Below are positions 1,490 through 38,420 of a stretch of 64,000 nucleotides of DNA, piece after piece (the first letter of the stretch is position 1; the number at the start of each line of letters is the position of its first letter). The stretch lies in contig CP136063.1 of assembly GCA_032622095.1 (NCBI GenBank), positions 209,919,934 to 209,983,933 on the forward strand, given 5' to 3'. Origin of the DNA: Siphonodentalium dalli (taxonomy: Eukaryota > Mollusca > Scaphopoda > Gadilida > Siphonodentaliidae). The position numbers and the translations under genes are program-made. Below the pieces are notes generated by a model. That model was given only the letters and a program-made list of their open reading frames with translations. It did not search any database and had not been told where the DNA came from.

Positions 1490-3625
1490 TAAATTTATAT
1501 TAAAGATACGTATAAGTCGTTACGGTGTCTGTATTAAAGAGTCATATATGTCATTACGGAGTCTATTTTAAAGATTTGTATACATCATTATGGAGTCTAT
1601 TTTAAAGATTTGTATACGTCGTTACGGAGTCTATATTAAAGATTTGTATACATCATTATGGAGTCTATTTTAAAGATTTGTATACGTCGTTATGGAGTCT
1701 ATATTAAAGATTCGTATACGTCATTACAGAGTCTATATTACAGATTTATATACGTCGTTACAGAGTCTAGATTAAAGATTTGAATACGTCGTTACGGAGT
1801 CTATATTAAAGATTTGTATACATACGTCGTTATGGAGTCTATATTAAAGATTCGTATACGTCGTTATGGTGTCTATATTAAAGATTTATATACGTCGTTA
1901 CAGAGTCTATATTAAAGATTTGAATACGTCGTTACGGAGTCTATATTAAAGATTCGTATAGGTCGTTACGGAGTGTATATTAAATATTCATATATGTCGT
2001 CATGGAGTCTGTATTAAATATTTGTATACATCGTTACGGAGTCTATACTAAAGATTTGTATACATCATTATGGAGTCTATTTTAAAGATTTGTATACATC
2101 GTTACGGAGTCTATATTAAAGATTTGTATACATCATTATGGAGTCTATTTTAAAGATTTGTATACGTCGTTACGGAGTCTATATTAAAGATTCGTATACG
2201 TCGTTACAGAGTCTATATTAAAGATTTGAATACGTCGTTACAGAGTCTATATTAAAGATTCGTATACGTCGTTACGGAGTGTATATTAAATATTCATATA
2301 TGTCGTCATGGAGTCTGTATTAAATATTTGTATACATCGTTACGGAGTCTATACTAAAGATTTGTATACATCATTATGGAGTCTATTTTAAAGATTTGTA
2401 TACATCGTTACGGAGTCTATATTAAAGATTTGTATACATCATTATGGAGTCTATTTTAAAGATTTGTATACGTCGTTACGGAGTCTATATTAAAGATTCG
2501 TATACGTCGTTACAGAGTATATTAAAGATTTGAATACGTCGTTACAGAGTCTATATTAAAGATTCGTATACGTCGTTACGGAGTGTACATTAAAGATTCA
2601 TATATGTCGTCATGGAGTCTGTATTAAATATTTGTATACATCGTTACGGAGTCTATATTAAAGATTTGTATACATCATTATGGAGTCTATTTTAAAGATT
2701 TGTATACGTCGTTACGGAGTCTATATTAAAGATTTGTATACATCATTATGGAGTCTATTTTAAATATTTGTATACGTCGTTACGGAGTCTATATTAAAGA
2801 TTCGTATACGTCGTTACAGAGTCTATATTAAAGATTTGTATACGTCATTACGGAGTCTATATTAAAGATTCGTATACGTCGTTGTGTAGTCTGTATTAAA
2901 GATTCGTATATGTCGTTATGGAGTTTATATTAAAAATTCGTATGGTCTATATTAATGATAAGTATATGCCGATAACTGAGTCTATATTAATGACACGTAT
3001 ACGTCGTTATGGTGTCTATTAAATATACCTATATATCGGTACAGAGTCTGTATTAAACATACGTATACGTCGTTACGGAGTCTGTATTAAAGATTCGTAT
3101 ACATCGTTATGGAGTCTGCATTAAAGATTCGTATACATCGTTAGGGAGTCTATATTGAAGATACGTATACGCCAATACAGAGTCTATATTAAGGATACAT
3201 ATACGTTGTTACGGAGTCTGTATTAAAGAATCGTATACATCGTTAGGAGTCTGTATTAAAGAATCGTATACATCGTCTGGAGTCTGTATTAAAGATTCGT
3301 ATACATCGTTAGAGAGTCGCTATTAAAGACACACGTCGTTACGGAGTCTGTATTAAAGATAAGTATGCGTTGTTACAGAGTCTATATTAAATATACGAAT
3401 ACGTCGTTATTGAGTCTGTATTAAAGATTTGTATACGTTGTTAGGGAGTTTATATTAAAGATACGTATACGTCGTTATTGAGTCTGTATTAAAGATTTGT
3501 ATACGTTGTTAGGGAGTTTATATTAAAGATACGTATACGTCGTTATTGAGTCTGTATTAAAGATATGTATACGTCGTTACGGAGTCTATATTAAAGATAC
3601 GTATATGTCATTAGGGAGTTCGTAT
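1490..3625. repeat. 34-bp satellite array with ~306-bp higher-order unit
   Basis: About 60 head-to-tail copies of a ~34-bp monomer, with core GAGTCTATATTAAAGATT then GTATACGTCGTTACG. Variants alternate TACATCATTATGG with TACGTCGTTACGG. A marked variant (ATTCATATATGTCGTCATGG) recurs near 1,986, 2,291 and 2,597, which is a spacing of about 305 bp or nine monomers. This shows a higher-order repeat present about three times. The array degrades after 2,900, where monomers become more divergent and some are shortened. No ORF spans it. Confidence 0.95.
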
Positions 3626-3637
3626 ACTAGACACATT

Positions 3638-3836
3638 TCGCATAATGAACTACTACTGATAAGAATTATGAATGGCTTATAGTAGCCGCAAAATGACCTA
3701 CTACTGATAAGAATTACGAATGGCGTACAGTAGTTGCATATGAACTACTACTGATAAGAATTGCGAATGGCTTATAGTAGTCGCATAATGAACTACTACT
3801 AATAAGAATTACGAATATCTAATAATAGTTGTAAAG
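3638..3836. repeat. 48-bp tandem repeat, 4 copies
   Basis: Four units of about 48 bp, each carrying GAACTACTACTGATAAGAAT and ending in a TATAGTAG-type motif. CTACTACT and AGTAG make each unit partly self-complementary. The block sits between the satellite and the palindrome at 3,842. Confidence 0.85.
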
Positions 3837-3841
3837 TTTTC

Positions 3842-4800
3842 GGATGGGATATGGGACAAAACGACAATCTGCGGGACAGAATTTCAAATTGCGTGGGACG
3901 GCCGATATCTCGAGGAATACAGGGCGTAGTGGGCTCATTTTGGTGTCTAACGAAAGGTCCACACTCGCCCTATCCACACATATTAACCCCACCACTGACC
4001 GAACACCAGAAGTTGCATTATGTGATCGACAACTGACCTAACATGGGGTGGAATTTGGGATAGAATGACAATCTGCGGGACAGGATTTTCAAATTGCGTG
4101 GGACGGACGATATCTCGAGGAATACAGCGCGTAGAGGGCTACTTTTGGTGGCTAACGAAAGGTCCACATTCGCCCTATCCACACATATTAACCCCGCCAC
4201 TGACCGGACACCGGAAGTTACATTATTCGGTCGACAACTGACCTAACATAAAATGACACAAACACGAAAAACTGCGTTCGACATTAATGTTTAGAATTTA
4301 GATTTCTCGATGAATACACTAGTAAACGACAAGTTTTAGGTATCAAATAACGCAGTGGAATAATGTGCATTCGTTTTTAGCTACAATATGGCTGTTTTAG
4401 TGCGAATATTGTAATGGCGAACACGCAAACACGCTCCGATAAAACAGCTAAAAATAGACTCGATGTTTACAATTACAGGATCGATTTCAGCCGGTATATT
4501 CAATATAATGGGGCGTATAGTATATCAACATGTAGAATTAGTCACAGGGAATGTATTTTTTTCCAAATGGGTCCACCAGGCGGTGAAATTGTTGCAGAAA
4601 TTCGCTCCAAGATATTCGCACTTATTTTTATTTCAGTTGTGACTAAAAGCCCAGATGCCGGAGCCCAGCGACTAAAAGCCAAGTAACAAAATAGATCAAC
4701 TGGTTTGAACGAATGAATATGTCAATGGTAAGACTATTCAAAATAATATTCAAATCAAATAGTGTTTATAGACTTAAAAACTTATGTGTCCGCAATTCAT
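3842..4800 (+). repeat. Fold-back palindrome I, left arm
   Basis: This arm is the inverted counterpart of 6,890-7,806. It starts GATGGGATATGGGAC and contains two direct subrepeats of about 200 bp (about 3,845-4,040 and 4,045-4,255). Each subrepeat includes ATCTGCGGGACAG, TATCTCGAGGAATACAG and CACACATATTAACCCC. The arm continues through a 90-codon ORF at 4,414-4,686 and ends in TTTATAGACTTAAAAACTTATG before the internal array. Arms made of direct subrepeats are the hallmark of Foldback-type elements. Confidence 0.85.
4414..4686 (+). CDS. Hypothetical 90-aa ORF, left palindrome arm copy
   Basis: The ORF starts MANTQTRSDKTAKNR and ends at TAA after SPDAGAQRLKAK. I recognise no domain. It has a basic, polar N-terminus, a central MGPPGGEIVAEIRSK segment and a short hydrophobic run (IFALIFISVV). 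The other arm carries the same ORF at 6,978-7,280. The two copies differ by only a few substitutions and by loss of this stop codon. The shared frame may simply reflect recent duplication or gene conversion, so real coding is doubtful. Confidence 0.25.
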   Translation: MANTQTRSDKTAKNRLDVYNYRIDFSRYIQYNGAYSISTCRISHRECIFFQMGPPGGEIVAEIRSKIFALIFISVVTKSPDAGAQRLKAK

Positions 4801-6900
4801 ATGCGGTGGAGGTTCTCATATTATCTGCCAGTCATACGCGGGGGAGGTTCTGATATGAACATATTATCTGTCGGTCATACGCGGTGGAGGTTCATATTAT
4901 CCGCCGGTCATACGCGAGGGAAGTTCTCATATTATCCTCCGGTCATACGCGGGGGACGTTCTGATATGAACATATTATCTGCCGGTCATACGCGGTGGAG
5001 GTTCATATTATCCACCGGTCATACGCGAGGGAGGTTCTCATATTATCCTCCGGTCATACGTTGGGGAGGTTCTCATATGAACATATTATCCGCCGGTCAT
5101 ATCCTCCCTCGCGTATGACCGGTGGCTAATATGAGAACCTCCCTCGCATATGACCGGCGGATAATATGTTCATATGAGAACCTCCACCATGTATGACCGG
5201 CGGATAATATCTTCATATGAGAATCTCCCCTACGTATGACCGGTGGATAATATGAACCTCCACCGAGTTTGACCGGCGGATAATATGTTCATATCAGAAC
5301 CTCCCCCACCTATGACCGAAGGATAATATGAGAACTTCCCTCGCGTATGACCGGCGGATAATATGAACCTCCACCGCGTATGACCGGCGGATAATATGTT
5401 CATATGAGAACCTCCACCGCGTATGACCGGTGGATAATATGAACCTCCACCGCGTATGACCGGCGAATAATATGTTCATATCAGAACCTCCCCCACGTAT
5501 GACCGGAGGATAATATGAGAACCTCCCTCGCGTATGATCGGCGGATAATATGAACCTCCACCGCGTATGACCGGCGGATAATATGTTCACATGAGAACCT
5601 CCACCGCATATGACCGGTGGATTATATGAACCTCAACCGCGTATGACCGGCGAATAATATGTTCATATCAGAACCTCCCCCACGTATGACCGGAGCATAA
5701 TATGAGAACCTCCCTCGCGTATGACTGGCAGATAATATGAACCTCCACCGCGTATGACCGGCAGATAATATGTTCATATGAGAACCTCCCCTACGTATGA
5801 CTGAAGGATAATATGAGACCCTCCCTCGCGTATGACCGGTGGATAATATGAGAACCTCCCTCGCGTATGACCGGCGGATAATATGTTCATATGAGAACCT
5901 CCACCGCGTATGACCGGCGGATAATATGTTCATATGAGAACCTCCCCCACGTATGATGGGTGGATAATACGAACCTCCACCGCGTATGACCGGCGGACAA
6001 TATGTTCATGACGGAACCTCCCCCACCTATGACCGAAGGATAAAATGAGAACTTCCCTCGCGTATGACCGGCGGATAATATGAACCTCCACCGCGTATGA
6101 CTGGCGGATAATATGTTCATATGAGAACCTCCACCGCGTATGACCGGTGGATAATATGAACCTCCACCGCGTATGACCGGCGAATAATATGTTCATATCA
6201 GAACCTCCCCCAAGTATGACCGGAGGATAATATGAGAACCTCCCTCGCATATGTGACCGGTGGATAATATGAACCTCCATCGCGTATGACCAGCAGATAA
6301 TATGTTCATATGACAACCTCCCCTACGTATGACTGGAGGATAATATGAGAAACTCCCTCGCGTATGACCGGTGGATAATATGAGAACCTCCCTCGCATAT
6401 GACCGGCGGATAATATGTTCATATGAGAACCTCCACCACGTATGACCGGCGGATAATATGTTCATATGAGAACCTCCCCTACGTATGACGGGTGGATAAT
6501 ATGAACCTCCACCGCGTATGACCGGCGAATAATATGTTCATATCAGAACCTCCCCCACGTATGACCGGTGGATAATATGAACCTCCACCGCGTATGACCG
6601 GCGAATAATATGTTCATATCAGAACCTCCCCCATGTATGACCGGAGGATAATATGAGAACCTCCCTCGCGTATGACCGGCGAATAATATGAACCTCCACC
6701 GTGTATGACCGGCAGATAATATGTTCATATGAGAACCTCCCCTACGTATGACCGGAGGATAATATGAGAACCTCCCTCGCGTATGACCGGCGGATAATAT
6801 GAACCTCCACCGCGTATGACCGGCAGATAATATGTTCATATGAGAACCTCCCCCGCGTATGACTGGCAGATAATATGAGAACTTCCACCGCATATGAATG
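4795..6900. repeat. 33/35/43-bp minisatellite in 111-bp higher-order units, with orientation switch
   Basis: Monomers share CGGTCATACGCG, a GGAGGTTC block and CATATTATC. Three length variants (43, 33 and 35 bp) follow each other to make a 111-bp higher-order unit. From about 4,795 to 5,105 the units point forward. From about 5,110 to 6,900 they point in reverse, so the array itself is an asymmetric palindrome. The switch lies near 5,095-5,125, where CCGGTCAT meets GTATGACCGG. Because 111 is a multiple of three, long in-frame ORFs run through the array on the minus strand (for example 5,930-6,316); they are artefacts of periodicity. Confidence 0.95.
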
Positions 6901-7806
6901 GCGGACACATAAGTTTTTAAGTCTATAAACACTATTTGATTTGAATATTCTTTTGAATAGTCTTACCATTGACATATTCATTCGTTCAAACCAGTTGATC
7001 TATTTTGTAACTTGGCTTTTAGTCGCTGGGCTCCGGCATCTGGGCTTTTAGTCACAACTGAAATAAAAATAAGTGCGAATATCTTGGAGCGAATTTCTGC
7101 AACAATTTCACCGCCTGGTGGACCCATTTGGAAAAAAATACATTCCCTGTGTCTAATTCTACATTTTGATATACTATACGCCCCATTATATTGAATATAC
7201 CGGCTGAAATCGATCCTGTAATTGTGAACATCGAGTCTATTTTTAGCTGTTTTATCGGAGCGTGTTTGCGTGTTCGCCATTACAATATTCGCACTAAAAC
7301 AGCCATAGTGTAGCTAAAAACGAATGCACAGTATTCCACTGCGTTATTTGATACCTAAAACTTGTTGTTTGCTAGTGTATTCATCGATAAATCTAAATTC
7401 TAAACATTAATGTCGAACGCAGTTTTTCGTGTTTGTGGCATTTTATGTTAGGTCAGTTGTCGGCCAAATAATGTAACTTTCGGTGTCCGGTCAGTGGCGG
7501 GGTTAATATGTGTGGATAGGGCGAACGTGGACCTTTCGTTAGACACCAAAAGTAGCCCTCTATGCGCTGTATTGTCATTCTATCCCAAATTCCACCCCAT
7601 GTTAGGTCAGTTGTCGATCAAATAATGCAACTTCTGGTGTTCGGTCAGTGGCGGGGTTAATATGTTTGGATAGGGCGAACGTGGGCCTTTCGTTAGACAA
7701 CAAACTGAGCCCCCTACGCCCTGTATTCCTCGATATATCGGCCGTCCCACGCAATTTGAAATTCTGTCCCGCAGATTGTCGTATTGTCCCATATCCCATC
7801 CCATCC
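6890..7806 (-). repeat. Fold-back palindrome I, right arm
   Basis: This is the reverse complement of the left arm. It includes the 100-codon version of the arm ORF and the two subrepeats, which appear here at about 7,436-7,605 and 7,606-7,806. The subrepeat nearer the array lacks roughly 60 bp relative to the left arm, near 7,570. The outer end reads CATATCCCATCCCATCCCGC. No target-site duplication was obvious by eye. Confidence 0.85.
6978..7280 (-). CDS. Hypothetical 100-aa ORF, right palindrome arm copy
   Basis: This is the right-arm copy of the ORF at 4,414-4,686, with scattered substitutions (for example DVHNYR against DVYNYR). The left-arm TAA is TTA here, so the frame runs ten residues further, to RSTGLNE. 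No domain is recognised. See the left-arm entry for caveats. Confidence 0.25.
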   Translation of the reverse strand: MANTQTRSDKTAKNRLDVHNYRIDFSRYIQYNGAYSISKCRIRHRECIFFQMGPPGGEIVAEIRSKIFALIFISVVTKSPDAGAQRLKAKLQNRSTGLNE

Positions 7807-8255
7807 CGCAGATTGTCATGTCCCCGTTTTTGGCGCTTTCATCACAGTAACGTGTGAAACGCACGTCATGTGAATGTCTCAGGTTTATTATGTTTGTTCT
7901 AATTCACCATTAGACGCCGCAATTCGGATGACGCGCTGCTCGCTACGCCGTCTGCAGTGAATGCAATTTAACGCCATTAACCAGGTATTTATTAAATACT
8001 CATTGGCGAGTATCTCTTTTGGAAAATGTTCAGATAATTAGTACAACAATAGGCCCTTTGTTGGATTTATTATCTATATGTTTACAACCAATCAATATGA
8101 ATCCTTCTGAACTTGTATCATCTGTCCTCTGCTTTTATTTACTGAACATCCCTCCAGATAAAAATGATTTCTATTTACCATTTCGATTTATACTTTAATA
8201 ACTGAATCCATTCAAAAAGGAAAGGGGTAACGTTGAGACTCATTGTGATAATACA
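7807..8255. other. Spacer between palindrome I and minisatellite; candidate lectin poly(A) signal
   Basis: No ORF is supported. On the minus strand there are AATAAA hexamers at 8,134-8,139 and 8,066-8,071. They lie just beyond the minisatellite in the direction of the lectin transcript, so the array could be part of that gene's 3' UTR. This is inference only. Confidence 0.35.
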
Positions 8256-9320
8256 AGTCCACCATGTTCCCCTATATTATTCTATATGTCTATCTCAATA
8301 CCATTCCACCATGTTCCCTTTATTATTCTTATGTCTATCTCAATACCATTCCACCATGTTCCCTATATTATTCTTATGTCTATCTCAATACCATTCCACC
8401 ATGTTCCCCTATATTATTATATATGTCTATCCCAATACAATTCCACCATGTTCTCCTGGATTATTTTGTATGTCTATCTCAATACCATTCCACCATGTTC
8501 CCTATATTAATATATATGTCTATCTCAATACAATTCCACCATGTTCCCCTATATTATTCTAGATGTCTATCTAAATACCATTCCAACATGTTATTCTGGA
8601 TTATTCTATGTCTATCTCAACACAATTCCACCATGTTCTCCTGGAGTATTCTAGATGTCTATCTCAACACAATTCCACCATGTTCTCCTGGAGTATTCTA
8701 GATGTCTATCTCAATACCATTCCACCATGTTCCCCTATATTATTCTATGTCTATCTCAACACAATTCCACCATGTTCTCCTGGAGTATTCTAGATGTCTA
8801 TCTCAACACAATTCCACCATGTTCTCCTGGAGTATTCTAGATGTCTATCTCAATACCATTCCACCATGTTCCCCTATATTATTCGATATGTCTATCTAAA
8901 TACCATTCCACCATGTTCCCCTATATTATTCGATATGTCTATCTAAATACCATTCCACCATGTTCCCCTATATTATTCGATATGTCTATCTAAATACAAT
9001 TTCACAATGTTCTCCTATATTATTCTATATGTCTATCTAAATACCATTCCACCATGTTCCCCTATATTATTATATATGTCTATCTAAATACCATTCCACC
9101 ATGTTCCCCTATATTATTCGATATGTCTATCTAAATACGATTCCAACATGTTATTCTGGAATATTCTATGTCTATCTCAACACAATTCCACCATGTTCTC
9201 CTGGATTATTCTAGATGTCTATCTCAATACCATTCCACCATGTGCTCCTGGAGTATTCTAGATGTCTATCTCAATACCATTCCACCATGTGCTCCTGGAG
9301 TATTCTAGATGTCTATCTCA
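8256..9320. repeat. 47-bp minisatellite at the 3' end of the lectin exon
   Basis: About 22 head-to-tail copies of a ~47-bp unit with ATGTCTATCTCAATACCATT, CCACCATGTT and a CCCCTATATTATT or CTCCTGGAGTATT ending. The two endings define sub-types that appear in blocks. The unit's TCTAGATGTCTATCTCA is the reverse complement of the last codons and stop of the lectin exon, so the array begins inside the coding end. Forward ORFs through the array (8,233-8,899) are periodic artefacts. Confidence 0.95.
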
Positions 9321-15330: not shown

Positions 15331-17010
15331 ATTAGCAGAGCGGACGGAACCGATTTCAGAAAGTTTAGTCCATCGGCACCACACACGGGCTTGTGATACA
15401 TCATTTGGAAGGTTAGGACATTCCGCATCGGATAGGACCCGGTGTGAAATATACAAATGATGCAAAAGATGATTTTTAGCTGATTAAGTGCCAAAATTCA
15501 GCAAAAATCCCTGTTTTTGTAAAATCGACAAAATGAGAAATATAAGTATAGAAACGCGAACATTTTGTGCTAAAATATTGTAGTCTACATACCTCTAGAT
15601 ATTTACTATGATAGTGGTACGATTTCTCTGATATAACGAAGATTTTTTTTAGATTTATTGTAAAAATAGACAAAACAGCGCAATTTTTTGGACCGGGGAT
15701 CACGTATATAGTCTAGAAAAGTGGGTATATATATACCGCATACGACAATATGCTGAATATGTCATAATATTTAACACGCGATGTGTTATGTAAGATTATT
15801 TCAACCCTCACCCCAAAATTCAGCAAAAAGTCACTGTTTTAGGGAAATTCGGCACAAATGAATACAAAAGAACAGGTATTCGGGATATGTTTGTGCTACG
15901 ATATAGCAGGTTACACACTTATAATTACAAAGTAATGAAATGCCATGATTGTGGTGATAGATGTAAAAATTTCTTAAATTTACGTGGAAAATAGACAAAA
16001 AAATCATTCATTTTCAGTTGTTTCGCCCCTCTTAATAGGCGATTATTCAGTATTGCATTGAATGGAGATCCCGTATATAATATAGAAACTGGTGGAAATA
16101 TATACTCCATATAATTGTAGGATAAGAATGTCATTCTTTGCCATAGATGCTATGTGGTGGTAGATTGTGTTACCCCCACCCCAAAATTAAGAAGAAACAA
16201 AATCAGTTTTAGAAATTTCGGTATGGCAGAATACAAAAGCACAACTCCCATTAGTTTGTGCTATTATATTGAAGTGTACCCACTTCGAGATATACATTAT
16301 GATAACGTCGTGGTATAATTTACAGATGGCAAATTTCGGAGTTTTCTTATGAAAGTAGAACGAAAATCGTGAAATATAAACTTGTTTTGCCCCTCTACAT
16401 GGGTGATAATTCAATTCCATTTTGAACAATAATCCAGGACAAACTCTCAAGAGTTGACGAGACACATAATGCATATGAATGTTTTCGGATTGTATCATCT
16501 TCTGTCGCATTTGTTTGGTTACGTTATTGCACCCATCGCCCCAACAATACAATACATTGTAAGATGAGACAAACACGGAATATTCCTATACACATTTATG
16601 CATTATACACATACCTTATCAAGCTGCGGCTTTTGATAGTTACTTGAGTTGAAGAAATTACATCATTGTATATGTTTACTTCGCATAATATAGCTTCACA
16701 GTTTTATAAGATTATACGTATTGGGAGGTTTAGTGATTGTTAATAACCAGGTTCAGCCACAGTACATGTAACTTGTAACATGTGTTTCCATTACCAACGG
16801 AATCACATGACCATTCCGCTTACACGTACACCATCAAACAACCGTTTAGACGTTTTGTGTCAAATGTGCAGCATTGCGAAATTTGTATCAGAGGGGTGTC
16901 CACTGTCCAATCTTTATATCAATCGACGAACCTGTGCTTAGTGAACTTTTGTTAAATTATTCAGCAGCGGTGACCACGCCGTTACTTTTCCCAAATGGGT
17001 TGTTGGTACG
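15331..17010 (+). repeat. Palindrome II, left arm (~1.7 kb)
   Basis: This arm matches 19,252-20,985 in reverse complement throughout. Examples are TTTAGTCCATCGGCACCACA near the outer end and CCCAAATGGGTTGTTGGTACG at the inner end. The outer two thirds holds three diverged direct subrepeats of about 340-360 bp starting near 15,486, 15,826 and 16,186. Each begins with a CCAAAATT(C/A)AG phrase and carries an AAATAGACAAAA or related block. The inner third (16,700-17,010) is unique to the arms. Confidence 0.85.
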
Positions 17011-17879
17011 ACTTCCTTTACACCGTAGGTCGTCTGCACCCTGGAACCGATGGAAGCCAAAGTTTGTTTGTATCTGGGTGCAGACATGTTCTCCAATGCG
17101 GTCGCATAGCCTACTCTTCTTCGATACACATAGAGGGTTTTTAGCGACCAATGGGCATGAATTACCCACGAGACGACACAGCCATTAAGGTGAGCTCGCG
17201 ATCTCACCACATCTGTTCGTGGGTCAACCCTGCAAGTTGAGACAAGAGGTCGTATTTGGAATGAACCTGCAGCCACCCAGGACTTGATGTTCCCCCATGG
17301 CTGCCACGTCTATTTAATCATATAATAGAATATTTGTTTACATCAACAGTACTGTACAAACAGTATATACTATGTATTTCTGTGGCTCTCCTATCTGGGA
17401 GTCATCATCCACGACTTTGCCCTATGGGGACCTTCCCATAGTATTTGGGGTTTTAATGCGCCACGATCTTCTTGGTCACAGCCATCAAATCGAGCCTTGT
17501 CATCAAGCTTGCGATGTTCTTTAATTCTATATATCGTCCTCGAATCCCCCTTGGGGTACCATGGCGGTGTTTTTGGGTTGGGCCATATTTCTTGGAATAT
17601 GATGAGGAACAGATGCCGTAATATCTCCCAAGGCCTTGGTCATTACATGCCGAATTTATCTGACCATGTATGTCTGCCAATGTGTCAGGAAGAATTTATT
17701 TCTCCTGTGCATTTGGTTTCACTTCAGGATAGGGTGGTTTTGGTTCAGCTCTTTGAAACACATCCTCATTTCTTTTATGGTAGCAGAAACTACTGCTGTA
17801 TTGCCATGTGATCATATAGACCCATACTAGATTCGTTAAGCTTTCTGAGCATTTTTGAATTTCCAGACCTTCCAGGAGT
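17011..17879. other. Palindrome II loop, proximal part
   Basis: No domain is recognised in the ORFs here (17,453-17,811 on both strands). On the minus strand this lies 3' of the gag-protease relic, so it may be decayed pol or long-terminal-repeat sequence. I could not find reverse transcriptase motifs in it. The 17,290-17,460 part is AT-rich with short direct repeats. Confidence 0.35.
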
Positions 17880-18810
17880 CACATATGGCATATTCTGCCA
17901 AAATATGTGTTCTCTACCATAGCTGGTGCCTGATCCGTGCTGCTTATCGCGGTATAAGTGGGCTCGTGATAATCAGTTTCAATAGTTCCAATTCCTTCTG
18001 GGGAATTTGTGTTGATGTGCTCTGACAAGTGACGAGAAGATACTATCTCTGGAAGAGTTTCCGATGAGTTAGATGATACAACTCGGTATGCCTTATTCGT
18101 TTCGTTGGACTCAGTGATCAGCAGCTCGTGTGTTACATCATTTATGTAACATATGTATTTATCTTCCGATAAGTAGTGATACAGTTTCTTGAGAGCTTGG
18201 AAACTTTTGCTCCAGTACCAATCAGAAACCTTACTGGCTGCCCATACAGATTGCAATCTAAATACAACCCCCCCTCTTCAGAAGAGCTGTATCTAACAAA
18301 CTCGTTGGAGTTACGATGTCCACTTGTGTTCTGCTGGTCTCCCCTACCACGATATGCATTATGGCACATGTCGCGTGGATTGTGAGAAGTTCTACATCTG
18401 GTGCGTTCTTTGTATTCGTTTGTGTTATAATCAGGATTATCATTATAATTATGTCTCCATTGTCTATCGTCACGACAGTCCCTCCAGGACTCATTTGTGT
18501 TATCCCTTTTCTCCTTGTTTTGGTTCTCCAAGTTTGTCATTCTTTGTTATTCTCCCCTTTACATCTCTTCACATCAGTCAGTATTTGTTTTATCTCCTTT
18601 ATCTCAGAGATGGACTGTGGTGTCTCGGACGATTGTGAGCTATTTGAGCTATCCAATTAGAACCAGTTTGGGGCTTCAGTTCATCTCTTATCTTTTTTAG
18701 TTCTTCAAACTCTATATTTTTGCTTTGAGTTGGGTCTGCTTCATTTAGTGCCCTAGCAAAGTGTTTAGCCCTATGTTTTTCAGACTTGGAAAAAGCCTCT
18801 AATTCAACTT
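17880..18810 (-). pseudogene. Ty3-like LTR retrotransposon relic (gag and protease)
   Basis: Minus-strand frames read through a gag-like segment (18,599-18,810, with KSEKHRAKHFARALNEADP). Then comes an Asn/Arg/Asp-rich linker (18,142-18,540), and then GGLYLDCNLYGQPVRFLIGTGAK. That last stretch is the retropepsin active-site region, where the family has D-T-G-A; here the catalytic Asp is Gly (LIGTGA, residues 106-111 of the frame). A frameshift after this motif moves the likely continuation into the frame at 17,879-18,256. A stop and frame changes also separate the gag part. It is a dead copy, and no intact zinc knuckle was seen. It sits in the loop of palindrome II. Confidence 0.65.
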
Positions 18811-18904
18811 ATGCTCTTATGTCTTATGCTCTCACCAAGAGAGCCCAGTCATGCTTGTTGTACAATGAGCCGTATATATATCTGGATCATCCAACCGGGT
18901 GCAG

Positions 18905-19022
18905 GACGTTTCGGCACCTGGACGTTTCGGCACTTGGTTTTCGAGACGTTTCGGCACTTGGTTGTTTCGGCCCAGGTACTTGGACGTTTCGGCACTTCAT
19001 CGAAGACGTTTCGGCACTTATT
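18905..19022. repeat. GACGTTTCGGCACTT minisatellite
   Basis: Five to six copies of a 15-bp core GACGTTTCGGCACTT, with spacers of varying length between them. It lies in the palindrome II loop next to the retrotransposon relic. Confidence 0.9.
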
Positions 19023-19251
19023 TGATTTACTTTTCATATATAATATTGACTTTGATGTTGCATTTATATTCGCCGTTTGTTATAATTCGGTATAGTACAT
19101 ACTAAAGCGTGTTTACACTGTCAAGTAGTTCCAAACCATCCAACGTCGTTAGAAACATCAACCGCACGCGACTAGCACAACGACCAGATGACCCTGCCAC
19201 ATGTCATGAAGAGGTAATTCTTATATGTATAGTACTACTATAATGGTAGTT

Positions 19252-20985
19252 CGTACCAACAACCCATTTGGGAAAAGTAACGACGTGGTCACCGCTACTG
19301 AAGAATTTAACAAAAGTTCACTAAGCACATGTTCGTCGATTGATATAAAGATTGGACACCCCTCTGATACACATTTCGCAATGCTGCACATTTGACACAA
19401 AACGTCTAAACGGTTGTTTGATGGTGTACGTGTAAGCGGAATGGTCATGTGAGTCAGGTGATTTCGATGGTAATGGCAGCACATGTTACAAGTTACATGC
19501 ATGTACTGTGGCTGCACCTGGTTATTAACAAACACTAAACCTCCCAATATATATAATCTTATACAACTGTGAAGCTATATTATGCGAAGTAAACATATAC
19601 AATGATGTAATTTCTTCAACTAAAGTAACTATCAAACGCCTCAGCTTGATAATGTATGTGTATAATGCATAAATGTGTATATGAATATTCCGTGTTTGTC
19701 TCATCTTGCAATGTATTGTACTGTTGGGGCGATGGGTGCAACAACGTAACCAAACAAATGTGACAGAAGATGATACAATCCGAAAACATTCATATGCATT
19801 ATGTGTCTCGTCAACTCTTGAGAGTTTGTCCTAAATTATTGTTCAAAGTGGAATTGAATTATCATACATCTAGAGGGGGAAAACAAGTTTATATTTAACG
19901 ATTTTCGTTCTACTTTCATCAGAAAACTCCGAAATTTGCCATCTGTAAATTATACCATGGCTTTATCATAATGTATATATCGAAGTGGGTAGACTTCAAT
20001 ATAATAGCACAAAATAATTGGAGTTGTGCTTTTGTATTCTGCCATACCGAAATTTCTAAAACTGATTTTGTTTCTGAATTTTGGGGTGGGGTGACACAAT
20101 ATACCAACACATAGCATCTATGGCAAATAATGACATCCTTATCCTACAATCATATGCAGTATATATTTCCACAAGTTTTCTATATTATATACGGGATTTC
20201 CATTCAATGCAATACTGAATAATCGCCTATTAAGAGGGGCGAAACAACTGAAAATTAATGATTTTTGTCTATTTTCCACGTAAATTTAAGACATTTTCAC
20301 ATTTATCACCAAAATCATGGCATTTCATTACTTTGTATTTATAAGTGTGTAAACTGCTATATCGTAGCACAAAATATCCCGAATACCTGTGCTTTTGTAT
20401 TCATTTGTGCCGAATTCCCTAAAACGGTGACTTTTTTTGAAATTTTGGGGTGAGGGTTGAAATAATCTTACATAACACATCACGTGTTAAATATGATGAC
20501 ATATTCAGCATACTGTCGTATGCGGTATATACATGTATATACGCACTTTTCTAGACTATATACGGTATCCGCGGTCAAAACAATATTGATCTATCGCCCA
20601 TTAAGAGAGGCAAAAAAAATGAAAAATTGCGCTGTTTTGTCTATTTTTACAATAAATCTAAAAAAAAATCTTCGTAATATCAGAGAAATCGTACCACTAT
20701 CATAGTAAATATCTAGAGGTATATAGACTACAATATATTAGCGCAAAATGTTCGCGTTTCTATACTTTTATTTCTCATTTTGCCGAATTTTACAAAAACA
20801 GGGATTTTTGCTGAATTTTGGCACTAAATTAGCTAAAAATCATCTTTCGCATCATTTGTATATTTCACACCGGGTCCGGTCCGATGCGGAATGACATAAC
20901 CTTCAAAATGATGTATCACAAGCCCGTGTGTGGTGCCGATGGACTAAACTCCTACTTCTAATGAGCTTTTTGGGTTTGTCCGCTC
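19252..20985 (-). repeat. Palindrome II, right arm (~1.7 kb)
   Basis: This is the inverted copy of 15,331-17,010, including the three subrepeats. Small indels and scattered substitutions separate the arms, so the duplication is not very recent. The outer ends diverge past CTCTACTACATAGAG. Confidence 0.85.
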
Positions 20986-24291: not shown

Positions 24292-26880
<2,589 letters not shown>

Positions 26881-27292
26881 CCTATATAGTGATATCAATA
26901 ATTTATTTGATATCACAAAATTAATATATAATACCACAAAATAAAATATATGATACCATAATACAGTAATCATTAAGGATATCACATATTCGATTTTATG
27001 ATATCATACAATGAATTTGTGGTATCACTTATTCGAATTTGTGATATTATATATTCATTTTGTGATATAAATAATTCGGATGAAAAGACTATTTATTGAT
27101 ATAACTAAATGCATTTAGTGATATCATAAAATATTTAATGATATCATAGAATAAATTTATGATATCACAATATTGAATTATTGATATCACTAAATGCTTA
27201 CTATTTTGTGATATCATATATTAATTTTGTGATATCAATAAATACTAGTTATTACTGATATCACATATTAGATTTTATGATATCACTAATTC
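26881..27292. repeat. GATATC palindrome comb, segment 1
   Basis: About 20 copies of TGATATCA or one-mismatch forms, spaced about 20-25 bp and separated by AT-rich linkers such as CAAAATNAATTA. Because the core is palindromic, the array looks the same on both strands. Confidence 0.85.
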
Positions 27293-28227
27293 ACGGATGT
27301 CGGTATAAGTGTCGTCTAAATGAAAGATCCCGCAAACTTTCGCCATCCTTAAGCTTCCAAGTGTTGGAAATTTCAAACCTGACACCCCCTATGGCGTTGG
27401 AAAATGTTCAACTGATGGCGATCCAAAGGTTCGAAAATATGCAAATGTTTGGTCTAAAAACGATAAATTTCCACTAATAATCTGTTGGAAAAATCAAACT
27501 AAGAGAACAATTCAACTAGCTGTTGTTGGTGTGAAATTTCCAACTAATGTTTGGTTGGTATGAAATTTTCAACTCTCGAAAAGTTTGACCAAAGTTGGGG
27601 TGAGACACCCCCTCCAACCTCCTCTGCCATCACGTCCTGTATATTGTTGACGTACGTACATGTGTCCATAATAAAGATTGACATCTCGCCGGCTACATTA
27701 GGTTTACAAAATGCGGTTTAATGTATTAAATGTTGTTGGCTGGGTTTCTTGACAGGTTATGTGATTAATGTGCATTTTGTTGACTCACCCTGATAAATCT
27801 CTTGAGCTTCGGATATAAATATTCTACACCCTTAGCTTTCTATCAATATACAAGTAAGGTTAGCCCAAGAATCTAAAACGCGGCGGCGGAATCTCAGAAA
27901 AAGTGGTGAAGGATCAGGGAGGATCACAATTTTCTGGTGAATGTGAAGGAGATATAGCTTAGTTTTTTCTTGTTGGACGTGATAATTTAACCATGGGTGT
28001 CCCGTGTCCCGTGTGTCACCGCGCACCACCGCCTCTGAATCTTTAGAATCAATGAGTGTGTGTGACCATCCCATTGCTTATAATGCAGGTGTGGCGACAT
28101 TATTTCCCCAACGCAGCTAGAGGCTACGATCTCCGGGTGACAGGGTGACCAGATGACTTCCCGGAAAACGCACGACAAACGTCCTTGGTAGCTGGGAGAA
28201 ATCATTTCATTTTGTTGAGTTTAGGTT
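27293..28227. other. Non-repeat block inside the GATATC comb
   Basis: This block separates two segments of the comb. Around 27,365-27,600 a phrase with AAATTTC and CAACTAATG or GTTGGAAA recurs in loose copies. The minus-strand ORFs at 27,832-28,205 have no recognised domain. No terminal inverted repeats were seen at the block edges, so it may be an insertion or a gap in the array. Confidence 0.4.
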
Positions 28228-28512
28228 GATTTATTGATATCCATAATTTGAATTATTGATATCATAAAATGTTGGGGGAATTAGTGATATCACAAAATGA
28301 TTTTAAGATATCACACATTGGTTTAGTGATATCATAAATTAATATTTTTTATATCACAAAACTTAATATATGATATCATAAAATAAGTAAGCATTTAGTG
28401 GTCTCACTAATTTGATTTAATGATATCATAAAATGATTTAATGGTATCACACAATGTGGTCTAGCTATGCAGTTTTCTATTTATTGATATAACAAAATGA
28501 ATTAGTGATATC
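28228..28512. repeat. GATATC palindrome comb, segment 2
   Basis: Same ~20-25 bp periodic TGATATCA units as segment 1. Segment 2 continues at 28,990-29,095 on the other side of a TTAA-flanked insertion. Confidence 0.85.
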
Positions 28513-28516
28513 TTAA

Positions 28517-28985
28517 AGGTACTCAACCCGATAAAACTCCTCTAAATTACTATTTCAATGGCTTCGGGGGTCAAAAAAATTTGATTCGAGTCGAGGAAGT
28601 CACCCATCAAAGCTCAGATTTGTTAGATATCGATTTTAGAAATCTATTATTTTTCATTATCGGGAATTCTTACTGGCCCAGTACGTAGTCAATTATTACC
28701 ACTTGATTATAGAGTTATCCATCCTTGTCTGTTTGAATAGAATTTTGGCGTAAAATCTCGAGCATGTTACCAAATTGACGGCAGTTATAAGTACTCATCT
28801 CGAGAACATAAGAATTTTCAAAAATCAATATCTAATAACTCTGAGCTTTGTTTGATGGGTTCCTCGACTCGAATCAAATATTTTTTACCCCCAAAGCCAA
28901 AGAAATAGTAATATAGGACCCTCTGATCGGATTGTTGTTGTTGGAATCTGTTGAGATGGGGACCCTCTTTACGGGTTGAGTACCT
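28517..28985. mobile_element. Palindromic MITE with TTAA target-site duplication
   Basis: The element is 469 bp, bounded by AGGTACTCAACCCG at the left and its exact complement CGGGTTGAGTACCT at the right. TTAA lies immediately outside on both sides (28,513-28,516 and 28,986-28,989). The inverted repeats extend well inward, for example ATTTGATTCGAGTCGAGGAA on the left against its complement near 28,860. The right arm has about 45 extra bp near its end. There is no coding capacity. It split the GATATC comb, so it is younger than the comb. Confidence 0.85.
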
Positions 28986-28989
28986 TTAA

Positions 28990-29095
28990 AATCATTTTGT
29001 GATATCATTAAATATTTAATGATATCATATATTCGATTTTGTGATATCATATGCATTTAGTGATATCATAAAATGAATTATTGATATCACAAAAT
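28990..29095. repeat. GATATC palindrome comb, segment 3
   Basis: This is the continuation of segment 2 after the MITE, with about five TGATATCA-type units. Confidence 0.85.
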
Positions 29096-29189
29096 AGGTA
29101 ATAAATAGATGACCGGAGCCCCATAGAAGCGGCGTGAACAAAGTATAGTGAGTAACAATCATACCAGGCAACAACACTCTCTTTCGATA

Positions 29190-37429: not shown

Positions 37430-38420
37430 AAACTTTTCTTCAATAAATGTGGGCTGCAGGGTGTGCCTAGATTTCAAATTAGAAATCCATGATGGCTGCT
37501 GGCAGCCACGTTTTATAACGAATTTCGGAAATAATCGATAGCTCCCATCTAGAGGTCACCCCGAAGATCCGCATGCAGTTTGGTGACGATTGGATGAGGG
37601 ATGTGGCCTGTAAGCTGTGCCGAAGGATTTAGTCATACAAAGAGTGAAATCCAAGATGGCCGCTGACAGCCATGTTTTTCAACGAATTTCGGAAATAGTC
37701 GATGACTCCCATCTGGAGGTCCAGAAGTTCCATATGAAGTTTAGTGATGATCGGATAAAGTGTGTGTCCTGCAGGGTGCGCCTAAGGATTTAGTGATGCA
37801 CAGAGTATAGTCTAAGATGGTCGTTGGTAGTCATGTTTTTCTACGAATTTCGGAAAAAATCTATGGCTCCCATCTAGAAGTCACCCTGAATATCTATATA
37901 TAGTTTGGTGATGATCGGATAAGGGATGTGTTATGTAGGGTGTGCCAAAGTATTTAGTCACACAAAGAGTAAAGTCCAAGATGGCTGCCAGCGGCCATGG
38001 TTCTTTTTATCGAAAATTGTTCAAATTCGATGGCTCCCATTTATTGGTGATCATAAACATGCCTGTAAAATTCCAATAAATGCTTGCTGCAGGCTATGCC
38101 AATGGATTCAAATTTGAAATCCAAGATGGCTACTGGCGGCCATGTTCTTTAACGAATTTATGAAAAAAATGATGGCTCCATCTAGAGGTCACCCCGACGA
38201 TTCATATGAAGTTTGGTGATGATCGGATGAGAGATGTAGGGTGTGCCAAATAATTCAGTCATACAAAGAGTAAAATCCAAGATGGCTGCTGGCGGCCATG
38301 TTTTTAAATGGATTTCGGAAATAATCAATATCTCCCATCTAGAGGTCACCCTGAAGATCCGTATGTAGTTGTGGTGGCGATCAGATGAGGGATGTGGTCT
38401 GTAGGCTGTGCCAAAGGATA
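37430..38420. repeat. ~160-bp tandem array with CCAAGATGGC cores
   Basis: Six units with spacings of about 164, 160, 165, 145 and 155 bp. Each carries CCAAGATGGCTGCTGGC or a variant, AACGAATTTCGGAAATAAT, CTCCCATCTAGAGGTCACCC and AGTTTGGTGATGATCGGAT. In the first unit ATGGCTGC and GCAGCCA form a short hairpin. No coding frame persists across units. Confidence 0.9.

What the first reader, a model, noticed from the sequence alone, without database searches (positions are those of the whole stretch)
3842..7806. Fold-back element whose arms and core are both built from tandem subrepeats
Arms of ~0.9 kb are inverted copies. Each holds a direct subrepeat pair and the same ORF, and the core is a 111-bp higher-order minisatellite that itself flips orientation near 5,105. 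Foldback (FB) elements of Drosophila have long inverted repeats made of short direct repeats, so the architecture fits. The nested, orientation-switching core is unusual. The sequence shows the structure; mobility is inference.
Basis: partly seen in the sequence, partly recalled or inferred. Interest (0 to 1): 0.7.

Follow-up and report, generated by a model that had tools for sequence, protein, structure and literature searches.

The report
Foldback-like transposon family, many copies
This stretch is one copy of a real jumping-DNA family of a known general type: two long mirror-image arms made partly of short repeats, present in hundreds of copies in a large genome, with no recognisable gene of its own to move itself.

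Summary
Confirmed as a mobile element. The window copy spans 3842-7824; its arms are 97% complementary over 981 nt. The genome (2.23 Gb, 9 contigs, species not established) holds 861 exact copies of the 31-bp terminus, against 0 in the reversed-pattern control. Of 20 copies fetched, 15 had both ends at my stringency; 13 of those 15 carry an exact 8-bp target-site duplication and 2 match at 7 of 8.

One correction: the array is not a core that flips. It belongs to the arms, and the 'flip' is the palindrome centre. That centre (J1) recurs in 10 of 15 copies plus the window; in most of them 3-7 units lie on one side and 26-61 on the other. The shared ORF shows no coding constraint.

Best reading: a non-autonomous foldback-type transposon moved in trans by a transposase that makes 8-bp duplications. 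Merlin (5'-GG ends) and Mutator-like are the leading candidates; neither was linked to these ends. It does not fit the Drosophila FB family (9-bp duplications, recalled). New family, known kind.

The parts
3842..7824 (.). whole element copy (3983 bp)
   Evidence: left match boundary shared with other copies; right terminus at 7824; left end lacks ~23 bp of the terminus
3835..3842 (+). possible left target-site duplication AGTTTTCG (6 of 8 with the right side); on this reading the element starts at 3843
   Evidence: best of 70 positions scanned, next best 4 of 8; weak on its own
7825..7832 (+). right flank octamer CGTTTTTG, partner of the above
3845..4249 (+). left arm, two 205-bp direct subrepeats
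   Evidence: family D6
4250..4788 (+). left arm, non-repeated part; holds an open frame that shows no coding constraint
4789..5094 (+). short-side minisatellite array (7 units by motif count)
5095..5120 (.). palindrome-centre junction J1 GGTCATATCCTCCCTCGCGTATGACC, shared with small variants by 10 of 15 other complete copies
   Evidence: position read
5121..6905 (-). long-side minisatellite array (36 units by motif count; 33/35/43-bp monomers)
6906..7444 (-). right arm, non-repeated part
7445..7824 (-). right arm, direct subrepeats and intact terminus; 51 bp missing near 7571
3863..3876 (+). repeated subterminal motif GACAATCTGCGGGA (left arm)
4067..4080 (+). repeated subterminal motif (left arm, second subrepeat)
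7767..7780 (-). repeated subterminal motif (right arm)
7804..7817 (-). terminal motif copy (right arm end)

Best explanation
A non-autonomous DNA transposon with foldback architecture. Each half is terminus + two ~205-bp subrepeats + ~540 bp + a minisatellite array; in the complete copies examined the two halves meet tail to tail with no separate middle domain. A transposase made elsewhere in the genome binds the ends, perhaps helped by copies of GACAATCTGCGGGA at +7, +44 and +248 of the arms, and inserts the element with an 8-bp staggered cut. Shown: interspersed copies, common ends, 8-bp duplications, unrelated flanks at the insertion sites, array-length difference between sibling copies. 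Inferred: cut-and-paste in trans, the motif as transposase site, and the superfamily (Merlin or Mutator-like most likely).
For: 861 exact 31-bp termini, 434 forward and 427 reverse, control 0 and 0. 13 of 15 copies with both ends have exact 8-bp duplications, the other 2 match 7 of 8; control: among 14 octamers, 0 of 182 ordered cross-copy pairs are identical and 2 of 182 match at 7 or more. A 1499-bp deletion derivative and a 7344-bp copy with a nested repeat also have exact 8-bp duplications; a 996-bp derivative does not. Of the 100 C1 termini listed, 27 of 30 neighbouring pairs under 12 kb face each other. Window and L009 are sisters on both arms (100/99 support), 98.3% identical over 3983 aligned bases with 578- and 425-bp array differences, and no flank match adjoining the insertion. 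The motif lies at +7/+44/+248 in 27 of 30 arms of the 15 copies.
Against: No copy with a transposase was found, so the mover is unknown. Seven long terminus pairs on C1 were sampled and none showed a recognisable transposase (only parts of most were fetched and no family search was run on them). None of 6 Merlin loci carried the terminus within about 1.5 kb, and 0 of 20 MULE and 0 of 3 Merlin hits on C1 lay within 20 kb of the 100 listed termini. The window copy itself has only a 6-of-8 flank match and two motif copies per arm, not three. One 74% flank match between window and L009 exists, 2.8 kb from the window copy and 0.4 kb from L009.
Confidence: 0.9

Rival explanations
1. Member of the Merlin superfamily, moved by one of the Merlin-type transposases in this genome.
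For: Ends 5'-GGG and 8-bp duplications fit Merlin (5'-GG, 8 or 9 bp; PMC8101967, abstract and passages read). The genome holds 62 matches to DDE_Tnp_IS1595, a number of them in open frames of about 480-600 codons.
Against: None of the 6 Merlin loci cut out (of 62 matches) carried the terminus at up to 5 mismatches within about 1.5 kb. Merlin inverted repeats are given as 24-462 bp, shorter than here.
Confidence: 0.35
2. Mutator-like (MULE, including Phantom) non-autonomous element.
For: [quoted passage not shown] 150 MULE-domain matches, 150 scored of 813 candidates.
Against: Duplications found are 8 bp, none of 9.
Confidence: 0.35
3. Moved by a hAT, P-type or Zisupton-type transposase.
For: All can make 8-bp duplications (Zisupton; hAT and P recalled). 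20 KDZ matches in this genome.
Against: The hAT target pattern nTnnnnAn (recalled) is not seen: T at position 2 in 5 of 14, A at position 7 in 2 of 14. The KDZ matches are mostly partial and about half have stops. hAT and P families were not searched.
Confidence: 0.2
4. Local inverted duplication or an assembly artefact, not an element.
For: A single palindrome could arise this way.
Against: Many copies with common ends and target-site duplications.
Confidence: 0.01

Closest known systems
Tetris (Drosophila virilis), PMC4079207, abstract and passages read
   Same: Foldback structure, long inverted arms (to 1735 bp) with internal tandem repeats of variable number, no coding capacity, 8-9 bp duplications in complete copies, transposase unknown.
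   Different: Tetris has ~220-bp repeats and a middle domain, with three structurally complete copies reported; here the minisatellite monomers are 33/35/43 bp, the arrays meet directly, and copies are many. No sequence comparison was made.
Drosophila FB elements (recalled; mentioned in PMC3169594 passages)
   Same: Long inverted repeats made of short direct repeats.
   Different: FB duplications are 9 bp (recalled); 8 bp here. Sequence relation not tested.
Galileo (P superfamily), PMC3573991 and PMC3688188, passages read
   Same: Long internally repetitive inverted repeats; ~210-bp tandem repeats in one subfamily; repeated transposase-binding sites inside the arms.
   Different: 7-bp duplications, and a transposase gene in near-complete copies.
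Tm1 of root-knot nematodes, PMC3169594, passages read
   Same: FB-like composite inverted repeats with variable number of an internal motif; 45 of 53 with 8-10 bp duplications.
   Different: Most commonly 9 bp, ~14-bp motif, and some copies encode a Phantom-type transposase.
Sea-urchin TU elements (recalled only; one search found no paper)
   Same: Long inverted repeats with tandem repeats and 8-bp duplications (recalled).
   Different: 15-bp repeats (recalled); not compared.

Membership tests
Foldback-type TIR element (structural class) | long inverted arms containing tandem subrepeats | tested here: met
Foldback-type TIR element (structural class) | interspersed copies with common ends and target-site duplications | tested here: met
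Drosophila FB family | 9-bp target-site duplication (recalled) | tested here: not met
   13 of 15 exact at 8 bp, none exact at 9
Drosophila FB family | sequence similarity to FB or its NOF gene | not tested
   no FB sequence was used
Merlin | 5'-GG ends and 8-9 bp duplications | tested here: met
   feature
Merlin | ends shared with an IS1595-type transposase copy | tested here: inconclusive
   0 of 6 loci examined, of 62 matches
Mutator-like (MULE) | long inverted repeats and 8-11 bp duplications | tested here: met
   feature
Mutator-like (MULE) | ends shared with a MULE transposase copy | tested here: inconclusive
   only nearness on C1 tested: 0 of 20 within 20 kb of the 100 listed termini
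Rehavkus | 9-bp duplication (with a minisatellite before the 3' inverted repeat and a PHD-finger transposase) | tested here: not met
   8-bp duplications; feature list
hAT | target pattern nTnnnnAn (recalled) | tested here: not met
   T at position 2 in 5 of 14, A at position 7 in 2 of 14
Galileo | 7-bp duplication | tested here: not met
   8 bp; 7 bp stated in a passage of PMC3573991
Zisupton (KDZ) | ends shared with a KDZ transposase copy | not tested
   20 matches listed, no locus fetched

The most novel reading that the evidence does not exclude
The minisatellite makes new palindrome centres by itself. Besides the common centre J1, three other centres occur (J2 in three copies, J3 and J4 in one each), and J2 and J3 both sit at the same near-palindrome inside the unit (GGTTC-CATATG-GAACC type). 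The monomer would thus be a fold-back hot spot at which replication or repair repeatedly re-inverts the array, renewing the foldback form, while the two arms of an element mostly keep separate histories.
Probability: 0.25. Interest if true: 0.5.

Novelty: new member of a known kind. Interest (0 to 1): 0.35.

Why it matters
Foldback elements have been tied to chromosome inversions (Galileo, abstract) and to the birth of satellite DNA (Tetris, abstract). A family with hundreds of ends, a widely shared centre and arrays that change quickly offers a large natural set for asking how long inverted repeats arise, stay diverged and lengthen. It adds a family rather than a principle.

Tried and rejected
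Arm ORF as a gene: rejected. No Pfam match for the window ORF 6978-7280 at E 0.01; shuffles reach such lengths; variable columns fall 18/23/18 by codon position, and changes 15/48/3 synonymous/non-synonymous/stop, close to expectation. RNA gene: no Rfam match at gathering scores in the window.

Autonomous copy: parts of seven long terminus pairs on C1 were fetched (one of them again in full). L029 and L035 are minisatellite arrays; L033/L038 holds a nested repeat of about 88-bp period; L030, L034 and L037 hold retrotransposon-like frames (my reading of the letters, no family search run); L036 has no match to the element. Variant termini: 14 found, 5 fetched. L045 is covered by the element throughout the part fetched; L046-L048 are diverged relatives with other sequence inside or beside them, in L048 a reverse-transcriptase-like frame (my reading); L049/L050 is a lone 21-bp end with no partner in the 9 kb read.

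Arm homogenisation: not the general rule, since own left-versus-right identity averages 97.3% over 15 elements (window included, L016 left out for want of an anchor in its left arm), the same as between copies. But the two arms of L019 group together, with one arm of L016 (100/96), so it may have happened in some lineages.

Papers: seven searches; none of the listings named this family, but no search was made by its sequence and no repeat library was available.

Selection: the 20 copies were the best matches to the window's left arm, not a random sample; 5 of 20 (L015, L021, L024, L026, L027) lacked one end at up to 2 mismatches in the stretch fetched (L026 was cut by the fetch) and were left out of the duplication count. 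Notebook entry 2 is wrong on one count: J1 is in 10 of 15 complete copies plus the window, not 11 of 15.

Full report
What is there. The window lies in a 2.23-Gb genome of nine contigs; the species was not established. At 3842-7824 two inverted arms are 97% complementary over 981 nt. Each arm has two direct subrepeats near its end, a non-repeated part, and a minisatellite with monomers of 33, 35 and 43 bp that gives 76-, 111- and 187-bp periods.

It is a mobile element. A search with 909 bp of the left arm scored 40 of 2301 candidates and gave 40 near-full-length matches and one 55-bp match, spread over all nine contigs. The 31-bp family terminus occurs exactly 434 times forward and 427 times reverse, with 0 and 0 for the reversed-pattern control. 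I fetched 20 regions chosen from the best matches. In 15 both ends were found at up to 2 mismatches; lengths run 3404-6373 bp; 13 of 15 have an exact 8-bp target-site duplication and 2 match at 7 of 8. As a control, among 14 octamers 0 of 182 ordered cross-copy pairs are identical and 2 of 182 match at 7 or more. The 300-bp flanks of the 15 copies show no match between copies at E 1e-3. Of the 100 termini listed on C1, 30 neighbouring pairs lie under 12 kb apart and 27 of these face each other. A 1499-bp deletion derivative and a 7344-bp copy with a nested repeat also have exact octamers; a 996-bp derivative does not.

The window copy. Its nearest sibling of those examined is L009 on C7: the short-side arms pair with each other and so do the long-side arms, both with 100/99 support (the bootstrap had not fully settled and 14 of 28 inner branches are weak). 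Over 3983 aligned bases they are 98.3% identical, but L009 has 578 and 425 bp more array. The window copy lacks about 23 bp of its left terminus and 51 bp in the right arm. A 6-of-8 octamer match flanks it exactly where the shortened left end begins; this is suggestive only.

How the centre behaves. In 14 of the 15 complete copies all counted units run one way up to one centre and the other way after it; L017 has two centres. Junction J1 is shared, with small variants, by L009, L012, L014, L016, L017 (twice), L018 (reversed), L019, L020, L023 and L028, that is 10 of 15, and by the window. J2 is in L010, L011 and L022; J3 in L025; J4 in L013 (the class names are my reading of the printed sequences). 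In nine of the ten J1 copies one side has 3-7 counted units and the other 26-61, L017 being counted across its two centres; the exception is L018 with 45 and 49. J2 and J3 both sit at a GGTTC...CATATG...GAACC-type near-palindrome inside the unit, which suggests fold-back re-inversion there (inference).

Arms. Short-side and long-side arms cluster on the arm tree (5 label changes against 10.6 in shuffles, 0 of 500 as low; the tool warns that near-copies alone cause clustering). This fits copying of whole two-armed elements. Own left-right identity averages 97.3%, the same as between copies, so the arms are mostly not homogenised. Against this, the two arms of L019 group together (100/96).

How it probably works. 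No coding capacity was found: the shared open frame is within shuffle range and its variation looks neutral. The motif GACAATCTGCGGGA lies at +7, +44 and +248 in 27 of 30 arms of the 15 copies; the window copy keeps two per arm. [quoted passage not shown] this is inference. The element is therefore most likely moved in trans by a cut-and-paste transposase.

Which superfamily. The 8-bp duplications and 5'-GG ends fit Merlin (PMC8101967, abstract and passages read). [quoted passage not shown] Both transposase types are in this genome: 62 Merlin-type matches and 150 MULE matches with 150 of 813 candidates scored; KDZ gives 20. None was linked to these ends: 0 of 6 Merlin loci examined, and 0 of 20 MULE and 0 of 3 Merlin hits on C1 within 20 kb of the 100 listed termini. 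I leave the superfamily open. Galileo (7 bp), Rehavkus (9 bp), Drosophila FB (9 bp, recalled) and the hAT target pattern (recalled) do not fit.

Novelty. Foldback elements with tandem repeats in their arms are well known (Tetris, Galileo, Tm1, FB). Tetris, read in abstract and passages, is the closest in behaviour: non-coding, variable tandem repeats in the arms, 8-9 bp duplications, unknown transposase. This is a new family of that kind as far as my seven paper searches show (listings, none made by sequence); the repeat libraries that would decide this were not available.

Noticed in passing
window 15362-20950: A second long inverted repeat: arms 15362-17020 and 19241-20950, 92-95% identical in the main blocks; no exact 7-10 bp flanking duplication found near the ends. 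Ten window ORFs, most of them from this region, gave only matches below the curated cut-offs.
   Followed up: partly
window 1496-3619, 3638-3816 and 8250-9320: Three tandem arrays of other units (periods 34, 48 and 47 bp) lie on the two sides of the element.
   Followed up: no
window 26868-29111: A stretch rich in short inverted and direct repeats around TGATATCA-like motifs.
   Followed up: no
window 37486-38419: A 164-bp tandem array of about six diverged copies.
   Followed up: no
L038, 2748-5573: A repeat array of about 88-bp period lies inside a copy of this element that still has an exact 8-bp duplication: an apparent nested insertion.
   Followed up: partly
L049 69-89 (C7:43404168): A lone 21-bp family terminus followed by unrelated sequence, no partner end within the 9 kb read.
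   Followed up: partly
L017 elements 2692-7923: A copy with two palindrome centres in one element, as if the centre had been duplicated.
   Followed up: no
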